Shown here piece after piece: positions 2-5,551 of a DNA stretch of 5,551 nt (positions are counted from its first letter, which is position 1; every line of letters starts with the position of its first letter). The notes below the pieces were generated by a model. The model was not told where the DNA came from. It saw only the letters and a list, made by a program, of their open reading frames with translations, and did no database searches. Origin of the DNA: Chloroflexota bacterium (lineage in GTDB: Bacteria; Chloroflexota; Anaerolineae; Anaerolineales; Anaerolineaceae); the NCBI GenBank assembly GCA_012800995.1, contig JAAZIH010000084.1:1-5551 (forward strand), in the 5' to 3' direction. Made by a program: the position numbers and the translations under genes.

Positions 2-1000
2 GAAAGCTTAGCTGATGGCAATGGCAATCCTCTGGATATTACATGGACTAAAAACGCTAATCCAAGCGGATGCTCAAATGGCAACGGTGGCGTTTCATTG
101 GAACGCAATTTTACTTATCAGTGGAATCATACGCCAACGGATGGATGTGCTCCTGACTATCCAGGCACAAATGCCCTTTCAGAGCCAGAAACCCAAGCTA
201 TACACAGCTATTTGCAGTCAATTGAGAGTTCACCTTATGGCGAAAATCTTTTAATCGATCTTGAAAGCAAAGGCAATTTTATCGTTCATCCCTATCTTTA
301 TTCTAAAAGCCATAAGGTCGACAATTATGATGCCTATCAAATCATGATAAACAAATTTGCCTACGGTCAAATTGCCGAGCCATTAGCTTCCAATTCATAT
401 TTAATTTTTCCCCAATATGGTGCCTTAATTGACGACGCGCATGCTCAATTAGGTATGGTGACCACACATTACCTGCTTGGTAATGATATGGATGGCGGTG
501 ATCTATCTTCCTGCGCTGCTTTTGATTCTCATTTGGCTGAACCAGCAATACAAAGTTTATTGCGAGTGTTAAAAACCATGCCGAATCCCCTTGAATACGC
601 GGCTGGTCCTGAAATTATTGACATCGTAATGAATCATGATACTAATGAAAGAAAAGTGACTATTACAGGTCAGTTGAATGCCTTTAGCTACTATCACAAT
701 AGTAATCGAGCATCATTTATAGAATCAATGCATTACAGCATTAATCTGCCTCCATGGCATCCAGACGCGGATTTGATTCCAATTAATACTTTTGAGCGGG
801 ACATTGAATATCCTGGCTTGGCAGATTTTACATTTAGTATTGGCAATAAGGATTTACCGTCTGGCAAAGTATCCATTTTTATCCAAAGTGTTGCTGAAGA
901 TCCAATTCGTAATAATAAACGTGATGCAGGTTTTGTTGAAGTTATCAACATTTATAATCAAGAGCTTTATTTCCCGTATATTGCGTGGAATAGTCATTAA
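2..1000 (+). CDS. M14 zinc-carboxypeptidase-like protein, C-terminal part, probably degenerate active site
   Basis: The reading frame is open from the left edge, so the true start lies upstream; the TTG at 98 is only an internal codon. The visible 332 residues match the second half of an M14 metallocarboxypeptidase domain: GVSLERNF (about residues 30-37) corresponds to the family GVDLNRNF block, SEPETQAI (60-67) is a typical family block, VHPY (95-98) matches the His196/Tyr198 region of carboxypeptidase A, and SSCAAFDS lies near 169-176. Cysteines in PSGC and DGCA suggest a disulfide in an exported enzyme. From about residue 197 a roughly 135-residue beta-rich tail follows, which I do not recognise. 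Three key positions look substituted: the Asn of the NR pair is Glu, the Tyr248 equivalent is His and the catalytic Glu270 equivalent is Leu. Family members cleave C-terminal residues; this one may bind peptides without cutting. The HxxE zinc ligands lie outside the window. Sampled stretches are more AT-rich than the genes to the right. Confidence 0.8.
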   Translation, partial: ESLADGNGNPLDITWTKNANPSGCSNGNGGVSLERNFTYQWNHTPTDGCAPDYPGTNALSEPETQAIHSYLQSIESSPYGENLLIDLESKGNFIVHPYLYSKSHKVDNYDAYQIMINKFAYGQIAEPLASNSYLIFPQYGALIDDAHAQLGMVTTHYLLGNDMDGGDLSSCAAFDSHLAEPAIQSLLRVLKTMPNPLEYAAGPEIIDIVMNHDTNERKVTITGQLNAFSYYHNSNRASFIESMHYSINLPPWHPDADLIPINTFERDIEYPGLADFTFSIGNKDLPSGKVSIFIQSVAEDPIRNNKRDAGFVEVINIYNQELYFPYIAWNSH

Positions 1001-1030
1001 GCAATTGGAATGTTAATTAATAAAGTCTTT

Positions 1031-1048
1031 AAGTAGTGGAATTAGTAG
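1031..1048 (+). promoter_or_regulatory. DnaA-trio-like tract
   Basis: Read in triplets the tract is AAG TAG TGG AAT TAG TAG, four of six fitting the TAG/AAG type of trio. It is followed by a G-rich 13-base spacer (1049-1061) and then a perfect DnaA box read as TGTGGATAA. In the Bacillus subtilis origin the trio strand also runs 5' to 3' through trios and a GC-rich spacer into a box of this orientation, with a shorter spacer. The match in order and polarity is visible; its function is inference. Confidence 0.4.
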
Positions 1049-1061
1049 GCTATGGGGAAAG

Positions 1062-1070
1062 TGTGGATAA
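1062..1070 (-). promoter_or_regulatory. DnaA box, perfect consensus (left box)
   Basis: TTATCCACA on the minus strand. It adjoins the trio-like tract and is oriented opposite to the right-hand boxes, so the AT-rich centre of the region lies between inverted boxes. Confidence 0.7.
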
Positions 1071-1166
1071 AAAATGATAGGATGGCATTTTGTCTCAGTC
1101 TCACTCGATATTTTCGCAAATCTTAAAAGAAATATTATCTACATGACATCGGGATAAAAAGATAGC

Positions 1167-1175
1167 TTTTCCACA
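1167..1175 (+). promoter_or_regulatory. Relaxed DnaA box
   Basis: TTTTCCACA, one base from consensus and within TTWTNCACA. A second TTCCACA core follows at 1177-1183, eight bases on, but its 9-mer deviates at two relaxed positions. Confidence 0.4.
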
Positions 1176-1276
1176 ATTCCACACTTACGGAAGAAAAAAT
1201 AAAAAATCGATTCATTTCTTCCCCGTTTTCTAAACAAAAAATCCACGAAAAGAGTCTCTTTTATAGTGAACTAATA

Positions 1277-1306
1277 AACAAAAACTGCGGACTTATCCAC
1301 AGTTTT
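1277..1306 (-). terminator. Possible terminator hairpin of the nucleotidyltransferase gene, overlapping a DnaA box
   Basis: AAAACTG at 1281-1287 pairs with CAGTTTT at 1300-1306. Inside, after one mismatch, GGA pairs with TCC around a four-base loop. Read on the minus strand, the hairpin begins about 26 bases after the stop codon at 1332 and ends in TTTTTGTTT. The stem is AT-rich, so it would be a weak intrinsic terminator, and it encloses the DnaA box at 1293-1301. Confidence 0.35.
1293..1301 (+). promoter_or_regulatory. DnaA box, perfect consensus (right box 1)
   Basis: TTATCCACA, exactly 21 bases (two helical turns) before the next perfect box, so both would face the same side of the helix. 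It lies inside the loop side of the inverted repeat at 1281-1306. Confidence 0.7.
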
Positions 1307-1311
1307 GCACA
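1303..1311 (+). promoter_or_regulatory. Relaxed DnaA box between two perfect ones
   Basis: TTTTGCACA fits TTWTNCACA and lies 10 bases after the start of right box 1 and 11 before right box 2. This gives three same-strand sites at one-turn spacing. Confidence 0.4.
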
Positions 1312-1313
1312 AC

Positions 1314-1322
1314 TTATCCACA
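1314..1322 (+). promoter_or_regulatory. DnaA box, perfect consensus (right box 2)
   Basis: TTATCCACA, ending nine bases before the stop codon of the minus-strand nucleotidyltransferase gene. It completes the phased right-hand array. Confidence 0.7.
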
Positions 1323-1331
1323 AAAACTCAT

Positions 1332-2468: not shown

Positions 2469-3254
2469 TTAGCTCAGCGCGGCATGTAGTTCTTGGGTGA
2501 GCGCGACAAATTTGGGGGAATAGCGAACATTGTTGTTTCTCGGACGCTCCAGAGAAATGGGCAAATCAAGCATTAATTGAGCCGGCCTTTTGCTGAAAAC
2601 GAGCACGCGGTCGGATAAAAAGACGGCTTCGTCGATAGCATGAGTTACCATGAGTACCGTTTTTTGTTTTTCTTCCCACACGCGCATGAGCTCTTCGCCC
2701 ATGCGTTCCCGGTTGAGCGCGTCAAGTTGCGCGAACGGCTCATCGAGCAGTAAAAGATCTGGGTCCTGGGCTAAGGCGCGGGCAATTGCCACGCGTTGTG
2801 CCATGCCGCCAGAAAGCTCATGTGGATAGGACTTCTCAAATCCTTGCAATCCCATCAGCTCAACTAAATCATAAACGCGCGACGCAATTTCCTCTGGACT
2901 TAGTTTAGCAATCTCCAGCGGCAAGCTGATGTTCTGCCAAAGTGTGCGCCAGGGCATAAGATTGGGTTTTTGAAACACCATGCCTACCCGGGTTCTGTAT
3001 TTTTGCTTTTGTTTAATGACCTGAACTGGCTCGCCAGAAAGGATGATTTTTCCCTGGCTGACAGGTATCAATCCGCTGATGGCGCGCAGTAAAGTGCTTT
3101 TCCCGCCCCCGCTGGGGCCAATCAGACAGACAAAGCTGTTTTTAGCGATCTCAAAGTTTAGCTCACTTAAAACCTCAAGCGAGCCGTCGCTCTCAACAAA
3201 TTCAACGCTAAGTTGAATAAGTTCAAGTGCAGGATCAGCGGTCGAAGGTGTCAC
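2469..3254 (-). CDS. ABC importer ATPase (SsuB/TauB/ThiZ type)
   Basis: This is the nucleotide-binding subunit that hydrolyses ATP to drive uptake through the adjacent permease. Counting from GTG 3254 (261 residues) all motifs are present: Walker A GPSGGGKST (46-54), Q-loop glutamine in VFQKPNLMPW (95), signature LSGGM (147-151), Walker B LLLLDEP with D171 and E172, D-loop, and H-loop histidine in MVTHA (205). Length and motifs fit the nitrate/sulfonate/taurine/pyrimidine-type importer ATPases. The GTG is preferred to ATG 3284 because a full AAGGAG Shine-Dalgarno (3261-3266) stands six bases before it, whereas the longer version would overlap the binding-protein gene by 50 bases and add an unconserved N-terminus. 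The chosen start still overlaps the upstream gene by 20 bases, suggesting translational coupling. It is the last gene of the operon. Confidence 0.93.
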   Translation of the reverse strand: MTPSTADPALELIQLSVEFVESDGSLEVLSELNFEIAKNSFVCLIGPSGGGKSTLLRAISGLIPVSQGKIILSGEPVQVIKQKQKYRTRVGMVFQKPNLMPWRTLWQNISLPLEIAKLSPEEIASRVYDLVELMGLQGFEKSYPHELSGGMAQRVAIARALAQDPDLLLLDEPFAQLDALNRERMGEELMRVWEEKQKTVLMVTHAIDEAVFLSDRVLVFSKRPAQLMLDLPISLERPRNNNVRYSPKFVALTQELHAALS

Positions 3255-4221
3255 TAAACGCTCCTTCAATATCCAGGGTTTCATTAATCAAGCCTAATTC
3301 AAGTAGTAAATGTTGCATATTTTGCCACTTTCGGAATTGCTCGACATGTTCAAGTGGTTCTGTTTGCCAAATGGCTATAGAACTTAGCATGACCTGGCGC
3401 TGAATCTCAAGCTCTTCCGGGCTAAGTTGGTTTAGGTTCTCAACATGTTTCTTGCATATGTCAAAGGCTTCTTCGGGATTTTCCGCGGCGTACCTAATGC
3501 TCTTGACAACAGCCTGTGCCATGGCTTTGACGAAATCAGGCTCATCCGCGATGGTTTTCTCGTTGGTCACCAAACAATTACCGACAAGATCCACGGCATC
3601 AGCAACACGAAGGACATCCACCTCATATCCACGTGCTTTGAGCTGAACAGGCTCATTGGCAACGTAGCCAACCACGGCTTCAACCTGTCCGGTTACCAAG
3701 CTTTCGACCTGGGTAAATCCAATAGAGTTAAGCGAATAGTCGCTGTCGCTAAGATTGGCAGACCGCGCTAAAGCTTCAAAACCAATATAACTGGCTCCAA
3801 ACAAACCTGGCAAACCAATCTGCTTGCCTTTTAAGTCAGCGGGACTTTGGATATTGGCTTCTTTAAGGGCTACCACTCCCACAGGATAATCGCTGTACCA
3901 GTTGGCAACAGAAACCACTGGCAGTCCCTGGGCGCGTGACATGAGCACTTGCTCACCGGAAGCGATCATAAACTGCTCTTTGCCAGCGCCCACAAGTGCC
4001 ACCATATCTGCTTCGTTTCCGTAAGCGAGTGTAACATCCAGACCAGCTTCAGCGAAAAAGCCTTTTTCGATGCCAACGTAATAAGGTGCAAATTGAACGT
4101 TTGGGATATAGGTCAGGTTGAGAGTAACGGGTCTAAGCGCTTCATTTTCTGCGAATGGCTTACACGCGGACAAGAGCAAGGTGATGATCAAAAAGATTAA
4201 AAAGAAAAGGCGTTTTTTCAT
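3235..4221 (-). CDS. ABC importer substrate-binding lipoprotein, NMT1/THI5-like (possibly RibY or ThiY type)
   Basis: The 328-residue protein begins with a lipoprotein signal: Lys/Arg start, a hydrophobic stretch 5-17, then lipobox LSAC with the lipidated Cys at 20. The mature part is a periplasmic-type binding fold of the NMT1/THI5-like (SsuA/ThiY) family. YIPNVQFAPYYVGIEKGFF (38-56) is the typical first-lobe block, followed by AGLDV, GEQVL (89-93), the NWYSDYPVGVVA strand, SPADLKGKQIGLPG (126-139) and LFGASYIG (140-147). Such proteins bind small aromatic or sulfonated nutrients such as hydroxymethylpyrimidine compounds, riboflavin, taurine or nitrate. The blocks VQFAPYYV, EQVL and PGLFGASYIG remind me of Chloroflexota RibY riboflavin-binding proteins, but this is recall. 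ATG 4221 has AAAGGA six bases upstream and overlaps the permease stop codon as ATGA, so translation is probably coupled. Confidence 0.9.
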   Translation of the reverse strand: MKKRLFFLIFLIITLLLSACKPFAENEALRPVTLNLTYIPNVQFAPYYVGIEKGFFAEAGLDVTLAYGNEADMVALVGAGKEQFMIASGEQVLMSRAQGLPVVSVANWYSDYPVGVVALKEANIQSPADLKGKQIGLPGLFGASYIGFEALARSANLSDSDYSLNSIGFTQVESLVTGQVEAVVGYVANEPVQLKARGYEVDVLRVADAVDLVGNCLVTNEKTIADEPDFVKAMAQAVVKSIRYAAENPEEAFDICKKHVENLNQLSPEELEIQRQVMLSSIAIWQTEPLEHVEQFRKWQNMQHLLLELGLINETLDIEGAFSDTFDR

Positions 4222-5036
4222 AAATGATCCTTTCGCCAGGTTTGCCAGACTAATGCCCGACGCTCCAGAAGCAAGACGACATAATAAAGTAAAGATGCCA
4301 TGAGTATTAAGCTTAAAACGGCAACAAAAACGAGGGCTGTATCATACTGCCCCCGACCAACATTAATCAAAAAACCCAAGCCGCGATCGGAGCTCACTAA
4401 TTCGCCCACAATTGCGCCAATGACCGAAAGGGTTGTGCCCACGCGCAAACCGCCTAACAAAACAGGCAAAGCAGCCGGCAGCTCAAGCATGGTAAGCTTT
4501 TGCCAGGGACTGGCGTTTAGTGAGCGCATCAGTTCATGTAGCTCTTGGGGGGTATTGCGTAAGCCCACTAAAACGTTGACCAGGACCGGAAAAAAGACGG
4601 TGAGTGAGCAAATGAGGACCTTTGAACCCAAGCCCGCGCCAAACCAGATAATCAACAAGGGCGCGACCGCGACCATGGGTAACGAGCTGCTCCCTACCAA
4701 AAAGGGTGCCATCAATCGCTCCAGGAACGACAGTTTGGATAGCCCGTAGCCTATTAGCGTCGCGGCAAGCCCACCGATTAATAAGCCTAAGAGGATTTCC
4801 AGTAAAGTCCAGGACAGGTGATGCCACCAAGTGCCGTTGAGCAGGATAAGTAAAAATTTATCCCAAACCATTTTTGGGCTGGGCAAAATGAAGGCGGGGA
4901 GTTTGAGCAAGCTATATAGGACTTGCCAGAGTGCCAAAAGCAATATCACGCTTCCCAAAGGATACAAGATGCGCAATAGCGGGCTTATTCGCGGGCTCAG
5001 TCTCTGGGCATGTTCGTTCTTTAATGGCTCGGTCAT
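4218..5036 (-). CDS. ABC importer permease (SsuC/TauC/ThiX/RibX type)
   Basis: This 272-residue inner-membrane protein forms the translocation channel, probably as a homodimer. A first membrane helix spans about 23-43, then LPSP (51-54) before the core, as is common in this family. Further helices lie near 75-98, 112-132, 138-158, 200-214 and 236-260. The cytoplasmic EAA loop that docks on the ATPase is at about 168-191 (ELMRSLNASPWQKL..ELPAALP); the usual Gly of EAA---G is Asn174, while the LP end is intact. ATG 5036 is the first start after an in-frame TGA in the leader; the Shine-Dalgarno (GAGAG) is modest. It is the first gene of the operon, four-base-overlapped with the lipoprotein gene. 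No TPP or FMN riboswitch fits in the 78-base divergent gap upstream, so regulation, if any, is by a protein or unknown. Confidence 0.92.
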   Translation of the reverse strand: MTEPLKNEHAQRLSPRISPLLRILYPLGSVILLLALWQVLYSLLKLPAFILPSPKMVWDKFLLILLNGTWWHHLSWTLLEILLGLLIGGLAATLIGYGLSKLSFLERLMAPFLVGSSSLPMVAVAPLLIIWFGAGLGSKVLICSLTVFFPVLVNVLVGLRNTPQELHELMRSLNASPWQKLTMLELPAALPVLLGGLRVGTTLSVIGAIVGELVSSDRGLGFLINVGRGQYDTALVFVAVLSLILMASLLYYVVLLLERRALVWQTWRKDHL

Positions 5037-5114: not shown

Positions 5115-5551
5115 ATGCCCAATGAACCCTTTATCCCCAGGAACATTTTACTCATGCCCAACGCGGGAGTGCCTAAAGCGATGGCGATCGCCAAAGAGGT
5201 GCACAAATACTTTTTGAATATCAAAGTGGATAGTGATATTTTTGCCTATGACTTTGAAGGCAAAAGTGAAAAACCAACGCTGGTTGACAGTGATTTGCTC
5301 ATCGTGATTGGTGGAGATGGTACGCTTTTGCGGGCAGGGCATTTATGTGCCATGAATGAGGTGCCTCTTTTGGGCATCCAAGCCGGCACGCTCGGTTTTT
5401 TGGTTGAAATTAAAGACAAAGAATGGCCAAAACAAATTGACCGCCTGATGAAAGGCGATTTTCGTATTGAATCACGTATGATGCTCAACGCAGAACTTGT
5501 ACGTGGCGACATTGTAAACGGACGCTGGGACGTTATCAACGAAATTGTTAT
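5115..5551 (+). CDS. nadK: NAD kinase, N-terminal half (runs off the window)
   Basis: NAD kinase phosphorylates NAD to NADP in the cytoplasm using ATP or polyphosphate, the only route to NADP. The visible 145 codons contain the diagnostic GGDGT (residues 66-70), followed by LLRAG, the second glycine-rich block GIQAGTLGFL (87-96), and the start of the NE/D motif with N142 and E143. The usual form of the second block is GxN.G.LGFL, so Gln89 replaces a normally conserved Asn. Family members are about 270-300 residues, so roughly half is missing at the edge. ATG 5115 is favoured over ATG 5154 because NILLMPNAG is the first beta strand and would be cut by the later start. No good Shine-Dalgarno precedes it, and the promoter predicts a leaderless transcript. 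It is divergent from the importer operon. Confidence 0.93.
   Translation, partial: MPNEPFIPRNILLMPNAGVPKAMAIAKEVHKYFLNIKVDSDIFAYDFEGKSEKPTLVDSDLLIVIGGDGTLLRAGHLCAMNEVPLLGIQAGTLGFLVEIKDKEWPKQIDRLMKGDFRIESRMMLNAELVRGDIVNGRWDVINEIV

What the first reader, a model, noticed from the sequence alone, without database searches (positions are those of the whole stretch)
1001..1331. Origin-like cluster of DnaA boxes between two convergent genes
Seen: three exact TTATCCACA sites, two relaxed sites, about 32% GC and no gene. Known: such clusters mark bacterial replication origins or DnaA titration/reactivation sites. Unusual: both flanking genes point into the region, so the boxes are not promoter sites, and no dnaA or dnaN lies in view. 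This could be an origin separated from dnaA, or a datA-like locus in a poorly studied lineage.
Basis: partly seen in the sequence, partly recalled or inferred. Interest (0 to 1): 0.8.

Follow-up and report, generated by a model that had tools for sequence, protein, structure and literature searches.

The report
Chloroflexota replication origin far from dnaA
The cluster is very likely the place where an uncultured Anaerolineaceae bacterium starts copying its chromosome: relatives keep such a DnaA-box cluster beside the same gene, many of them with a predicted DNA-opening sequence, and where the distance could be measured it lies far from the dnaA gene.

Summary
Bases 1001-1331 carry 3 exact and 2 one-mismatch DnaA boxes (0 of 2000 shuffles reach either count). 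The window's relatives are Anaerolineaceae (Chloroflexota). They keep a box cluster at the 3' end of the same nucleotidyltransferase (NT) gene: at least 3 boxes in 64 of 72 loci, against 0 of 76 upstream of that gene. Next to the box at 1062-1070 lie a 13-bp spacer and DnaA-trios (3'-GAT-GAT-TAA-5', 1048 down to 1040), which meet the published rule for an origin unwinding module (BUS). In five relatives the cumulative GC-skew minimum falls 0.3 to 50 kb from the site; in two of them most of the chromosome was sampled. dnaA lies elsewhere: 332 kb away in Leptolinea sp. HRD-7. A purely titrating datA-like site is therefore unlikely. A second box pair without trios (own contig C227; 54-59 kb from the origin in two relatives) is the better candidate for that. 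Initiation itself is untested. It is a new member of a known kind (oriC), at an address that my paper searches (capped lists) did not show described; DoriC could not be searched.

The parts
1001..1331 (.). predicted chromosomal origin (oriC) between two convergent genes
   Evidence: box cluster; at least 3 boxes at the NT gene 3' end in 64 of 72 loci; GC-skew minimum at or near the site in five relatives
1001..1030 (+). AT-rich stretch (77% AT, includes TTAATTAA at 1013-1020), predicted outer part of the unwinding element
   Evidence: composition; an AT-rich tail follows the trios in the genus alignment
1031..1048 (+). DnaA-trio run, read 3'->5' from 1048: GAT-GAT-TAA-GGT-GAT-GAA
   Evidence: sequence; published BUS rule met with 3 consecutive NAN trios (rule in PMC8287927)
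1049..1061 (-). 13-bp spacer with a degenerate second box between box and trios
   Evidence: the published spacer peak is 10-13 bp (PMC8287927)
1062..1070 (-). exact DnaA box that would anchor the unwinding module
   Evidence: the position is kept in the genus alignment, exact in 3 of 14 rows and degenerate in the rest
1135..1143 (+). one-mismatch DnaA box TTATCTACA
1167..1175 (+). one-mismatch DnaA box TTTTCCACA
1293..1301 (+). exact DnaA box, first of a pair 21 bp apart
   Evidence: the phased pair (up to 2 mismatches) lies within about 4 kb of the NT gene in 7 of 10 relatives searched
1314..1322 (+). exact DnaA box, second of the pair, 9 bp from the NT stop codon
1332..2429 (-). nucleotidyltransferase-like gene (weak PF18765 Polbeta, below cut-off), the conserved neighbour of the origin
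   Evidence: a relative in 86 of 101 genomes searched, own included
2..1000 (+). 3' part of an M14 zinc carboxypeptidase gene, convergent neighbour on the unwinding side
   Evidence: PF00246; same family in L158, other genes in L214 and L233

Best explanation
Bases 1001-1331 are very likely the chromosomal replication origin (oriC) of an Anaerolineaceae bacterium, standing apart from dnaA. Shown: a DnaA-box cluster, a box-spacer-trio arrangement meeting the published unwinding-module rule, box clusters at the same gene in relatives, and GC-skew minima at or near the site in five relatives. Inferred: DnaA, made from a distant locus, binds the phased pair at 1293-1322 and the boxes between, and the exact box at 1062-1070. 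From that last box a DnaA-ATP filament would grow across the 13-bp spacer onto the 3'-GAT trios of the + strand (1048 towards 1031), open the AT-rich DNA at 1001-1048, and let the helicase load, so that two forks leave in opposite directions.
For: Box cluster far above chance. At least 3 boxes within 1 kb of the NT 3' end in 64 of 72 loci, against 0 of 76 upstream and 0 of 72 for the reversed motif. Genus alignment of 14 rows shows box, degenerate box, GC cluster, trios and AT-rich tail. The published BUS rule, with the first trio required to be GAT, is met by the window and by 34 of 74 loci (3 of the 34 on the opposite strand), against 1 of 72 upstream stretches and 54 of 1480 shuffles. A looser motif that I wrote after seeing the data gives 54 of 73 against 1 of 71 and 47 of 730. 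GC-skew minimum against site: G010 40 vs 36.0 kb, G021 150 vs 150.3, G047 208 vs 204.4, G057 665 vs 677.7, HRD-7 986 vs 1036. In HRD-7 the only group of at least 3 exact boxes within 500 bp, among 64 in the genome, is this site. The own genome's DnaA carries GGRDHTTV, which I recall as the box-reading signature.
Against: No replication, binding or coverage data. The own genome is too fragmented (296 contigs) for skew. 8 of 72 loci lack three boxes. 40 of 74 fail the strict trio rule and 19 of 73 the loose one. The exact genome-wide pattern box-N7..13-CCTAC was found in only 10 of 61 genomes, and its reversed control had 7 matches, so that pattern alone is not significant. The skew minimum is 50 kb off in HRD-7, single sampled stretches there go against the trend, and the G071 profile is inconclusive. 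G044 has no phased pair, and those of G071 are not beside its NT-like gene.
Confidence: 0.93

Rival explanations
1. A DnaA titration or reactivation locus (datA- or DARS-like): the boxes would bind DnaA and regulate its supply or nucleotide state, while initiation happens elsewhere.
For: Box cluster without dnaA; convergent genes, so not a promoter.
Against: DnaA-trio module beside the box and GC-skew minima at or near the site are origin features that a titration site would not need. In the three fully read relative contigs a second box pair lies 17-55 kb from the skew minimum while this site lies 0.3-4 kb from it.
Confidence: 0.04
2. A DnaA-regulated transcription control region for the neighbouring genes.
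For: DnaA boxes do occur in promoters (recalled).
Against: Both genes end here, so no promoter is expected. The cluster follows the NT 3' end while the gene on the other side differs between the genera examined.
Confidence: 0.02
3. Chance cluster in AT-rich DNA.
For: The region is 68% AT.
Against: 0 of 2000 shuffles of the region itself; box clusters at the same place in 64 of 72 relatives' loci.
Confidence: 0.005

Closest known systems
Bacillus subtilis oriC with its basal unwinding system (two DnaA boxes, spacer, DnaA-trios)
   Same: Box, degenerate second box, short spacer and 3'-GAT trios next to AT-rich DNA (passages of PMC8287927, and of PMC6669920)
   Different: Not beside dnaA (the position of B. 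subtilis oriC beside dnaA is recalled); no dnaN or recF in view; the added boxes form a 21-bp phased pair at the far end
Escherichia coli oriC (recalled: gidA-mioC, tens of kb from dnaA)
   Same: Origin separated from dnaA
   Different: Other neighbours; here a nucleotidyltransferase-like gene on the box side
E. coli datA (recalled)
   Same: Cluster of DnaA boxes outside dnaA
   Different: Here a trio module is present and the site lies at or near the GC-skew minimum in relatives

Membership tests
bacterial oriC | cluster of DnaA boxes above chance | tested here: met
   5 sites with at most one mismatch in 331 bp, 0 of 2000 shuffles
bacterial oriC | AT-rich unwinding element | tested here: met
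   1001-1030 is 77% AT, 1001-1048 73% AT
bacterial oriC | lies at the GC-skew minimum | tested here: met
   in five relatives, 0.3 to 50 kb from the minimum; not testable in the own 296-contig genome; G071 inconclusive
bacterial oriC | replication starts there | not testable with these tools
   no reads, no assay
basal unwinding system (BUS) | at least 3 trios 3'-NAN-5' within 16 bp of a DnaA box | tested here: met
   window: exact box, spacer 13, GAT-GAT-TAA; rule from PMC8287927
BUS | conserved in relatives | tested here: met
   strict rule 34 of 74 loci against 1 of 72 upstream; looser motif, written after inspection, 54 of 73 against 1 of 71; exact pattern no better than its control genome-wide
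BUS | DnaA-ATP-dependent strand opening | not testable with these tools
   biochemistry needed
dnaA-linked oriC | adjacent to dnaA | tested here: not met
   332 kb apart in HRD-7; on other contigs in the own genome, G010 and G021
datA/DARS | binds DnaA without being an origin | tested here: inconclusive
   binding untested; trio module and skew minimum argue against

The most novel reading that the evidence does not exclude
Anaerolineaceae keep their origin at a fixed address away from dnaA, beside a conserved nucleotidyltransferase-like gene and, in two genera examined, deoxynucleoside kinase genes. That neighbourhood takes part in control: the gene products or their convergent transcription tie the timing of initiation to nucleotide supply.
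Probability: 0.12. Interest if true: 0.7.

Novelty: new member of a known kind. Interest (0 to 1): 0.5.

Why it matters
It gives a sequence-level origin for a large, mostly uncultured family. That would allow growth rates to be read from metagenome coverage, correct zero points for genome maps, and a test of how an origin works far from its initiator gene. It also places a trio-type unwinding module in Chloroflexota, in line with the proposal that this module is ancestral (passage of PMC6669920).

Tried and rejected
Rfam scan: no match. Site B (own C227:4767-4796, same 21-bp box pair) was considered as the origin and rejected: no trios beside the pair (the motif matches that contig once, about 0.9 kb away at a two-mismatch box, and not at all in L075 or L080), and in G010 and G021 it lies 54-55 kb from the skew minimum; another box pair in G047 lies 17 kb from it. 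G071 as a further complete-genome test: sampled skew too noisy, its box pairs and trio motif are at 150 and 505 kb, and the NT hit at 929 kb is not beside them, so the NT-origin linkage is not shown in that family. The genome-wide exact trio pattern gave 10 matches in 61 genomes against 7 reversed-control matches, so it is no better than its control in total; 4 of the 10 lie beside the NT gene (own, G010, G021, G031). Loci dropped before counts: 7 of 79 with under 600 bp downstream. In one search, 4 of the 79 were not given and 1 of the 75 given was short, leaving 74. In one search, 6 of the 79 were not given, leaving 73. One search looked at 44 of the 79 loci.

Full report
What was checked. 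The 331 bases hold 3 exact and 2 one-mismatch DnaA boxes, far above shuffles of the same stretch, at 32.3% GC, between an M14 peptidase gene fragment (+) and a nucleotidyltransferase-like (NT) gene (-) that both end there. The genome has 22 exact boxes in all, against 7 matches of the reversed motif. Among these exact boxes only this site (three) and contig C227 (two, 21 bp apart, as here) are clustered.

Lineage. The 79 relatives found with the NT protein alignment bear names from Anaerolineaceae and other Chloroflexota. The closest hit is UBA5404 at 80% identity, and cultivated relatives include Levilinea saccharolytica, Bellilinea caldifistulae, Leptolinea tardivitalis and Anaerolinea thermolimosa. 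The own genome may be left out of that list, so its family is inferred from its neighbours.

Conservation. The NT protein has a match in 86 of 101 genomes searched, own included. The 331 bases themselves match as DNA, mostly in short pieces around the box pair, in 15 of 101, own included; several lie beside the NT gene. Of 79 named loci, 72 have at least 600 bases downstream of the NT match. 64 of these have three or more boxes with at most one mismatch within 1 kb, and 61 have two or more exact boxes. Upstream of the same gene the count is 0 of 76 for three or more boxes (1 of 76 has one exact box), and the reversed motif gives 0 of 72 downstream. The gene on the other side differs: M14 peptidase in L158, a galactose-1-phosphate uridylyltransferase-type gene in Leptolinea sp. 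HRD-7, a deoxynucleoside kinase in A. thermolimosa. So the boxes stay with the 3' end of the NT gene, not with a promoter.

Unwinding module. Read from the NT gene, the genus alignment (14 rows) shows a phased box array, then about 200-300 bp further the order box, degenerate box, GC cluster, CTA-CTA trios, AT-rich tail; the anchoring box is exact in 3 of the 14 rows. In the window this is the exact box 1062-1070 (-), a 13-bp spacer, and 3'-GAT-GAT-TAA-GGT-GAT-GAA-5' on the + strand from 1048 to 1031. A published search rule asks for at least three 3'-NAN-5' trios within 16 bp of a box, and reports 3'-GAT-5' as the most frequent trio and a spacer peak of 10-13 bp (PMC8287927, passages seen). 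The window meets it. With the first trio required to be GAT, 34 of 74 relatives' loci meet it (3 of the 34 on the opposite strand), against 1 of 72 upstream stretches and 54 of 1480 shuffled sequences. A motif I wrote after looking at the sequences is present in 54 of 73, against 1 of 71 upstream and 47 of 730 shuffled. Against this, the exact pattern box-N7..13-CCTAC was found in 10 of 61 genomes with 7 reversed-control matches. In the own genome its only match is the window site, and in G010, G021 and G031 it lies beside the NT gene; the other six matches lie elsewhere.

Strand asymmetry. On three contigs read in full the cumulative GC-skew minimum lies 4.0, 0.3 and 3.6 kb from the site (G010:C6, G021:C19, G047:C13). 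Block-permuted arrangements put the minimum as near in 65, 9 and 1 of 5000. In G057 (4.145-Mb contig sampled by 20 stretches) skew is negative in the four stretches up to 570 kb, positive from 680 kb to 2.77 Mb but for one stretch near zero, and negative from 2.99 Mb. The fine minimum within 610-750 kb is at 665 kb, the box pair at 677.7 kb. In the complete genome of Leptolinea sp. HRD-7 (34 stretches) the minimum is at 986 kb, the box group at 1,036.3-1,036.5 kb, and the opposite turn near 3.0 Mb. There the left side is weakly negative on balance with some positive stretches, and one stretch to the right of the site is slightly negative. G071, from another family of the order, was inconclusive.

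dnaA. It lies 332 kb from the site in HRD-7. In G057 it is at 3.83 Mb of the same contig, 3.1 Mb along it, or about 1.0-1.3 Mb the other way if the two contigs form one circle (circularity assumed). In the own genome, G010 and G021 it is on another contig. Beside the own dnaA are a polA-like and an oxidoreductase-like frame, named by eye from the translations, and no box cluster.

How it would work. DnaA binds the boxes. From the box at 1062-1070 an ATP-DnaA filament would extend onto the trios and open the AT-rich DNA towards 1001. The phased pair at 1293-1322 may raise local DnaA, a possibility that PMC6669920 raises for added boxes (passages seen). Box positions, trios, conservation and skew are shown; binding, opening and initiation are inferred.

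Literature. Searches for Anaerolineae or Chloroflexi with oriC, DnaA box, dnaA, origin, DnaA-trio and GC skew, and for Leptolinea with oriC, listed no paper that by title, abstract start or the passages read describes this origin. The lists were capped at 20 of 264, 15 of 10,187 and 15 of 541 papers. The Chloroflexus aurantiacus genome paper places oriC at the top of its map and dnaA as gene 0001 (passages). The word Anaerolin does not occur in the main text of the BUS survey; its supplement was not read. DoriC, a catalogue of predicted origins, could not be searched and may hold predictions for this family.

Noticed in passing
own contig C227 (L026:4767-4842); L080:1501-1530; L075:1501-1530: A second pair of exact DnaA boxes 21 bp apart just after a gene that looks like an HD-domain gene by eye, without trios beside the pair, present in three species and 54-59 kb from the origin in G010 and G021: a candidate datA-like or regulatory site.
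   Followed up: partly
L214:3162-5969; L233:5295-5963 and 7898-8551: DNA polymerase III delta (holA) and deoxynucleoside kinase genes lie near the NT gene and origin in Leptolinea sp. HRD-7; A. thermolimosa has deoxynucleoside kinases on both sides.
   Followed up: partly
window 2469-5036 (-): An ABC transporter set with an NMT1/THI5-like binding protein, possibly for a thiamine precursor, next to an NAD kinase gene at 5115.
   Followed up: no
own contig C219 (L028): A reading frame of 481 aa with two weak Bac_DnaA-domain matches in tandem; similar weak matches occur in the ten relatives searched. Probably a tandem AAA protein, not dnaA.
   Followed up: no
G071:C1:150305-150503 and 505306-505621: Another family of the order has two box clusters, one with a trio-like motif, away from its NT-like gene: its origin may have other neighbours.
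   Followed up: partly
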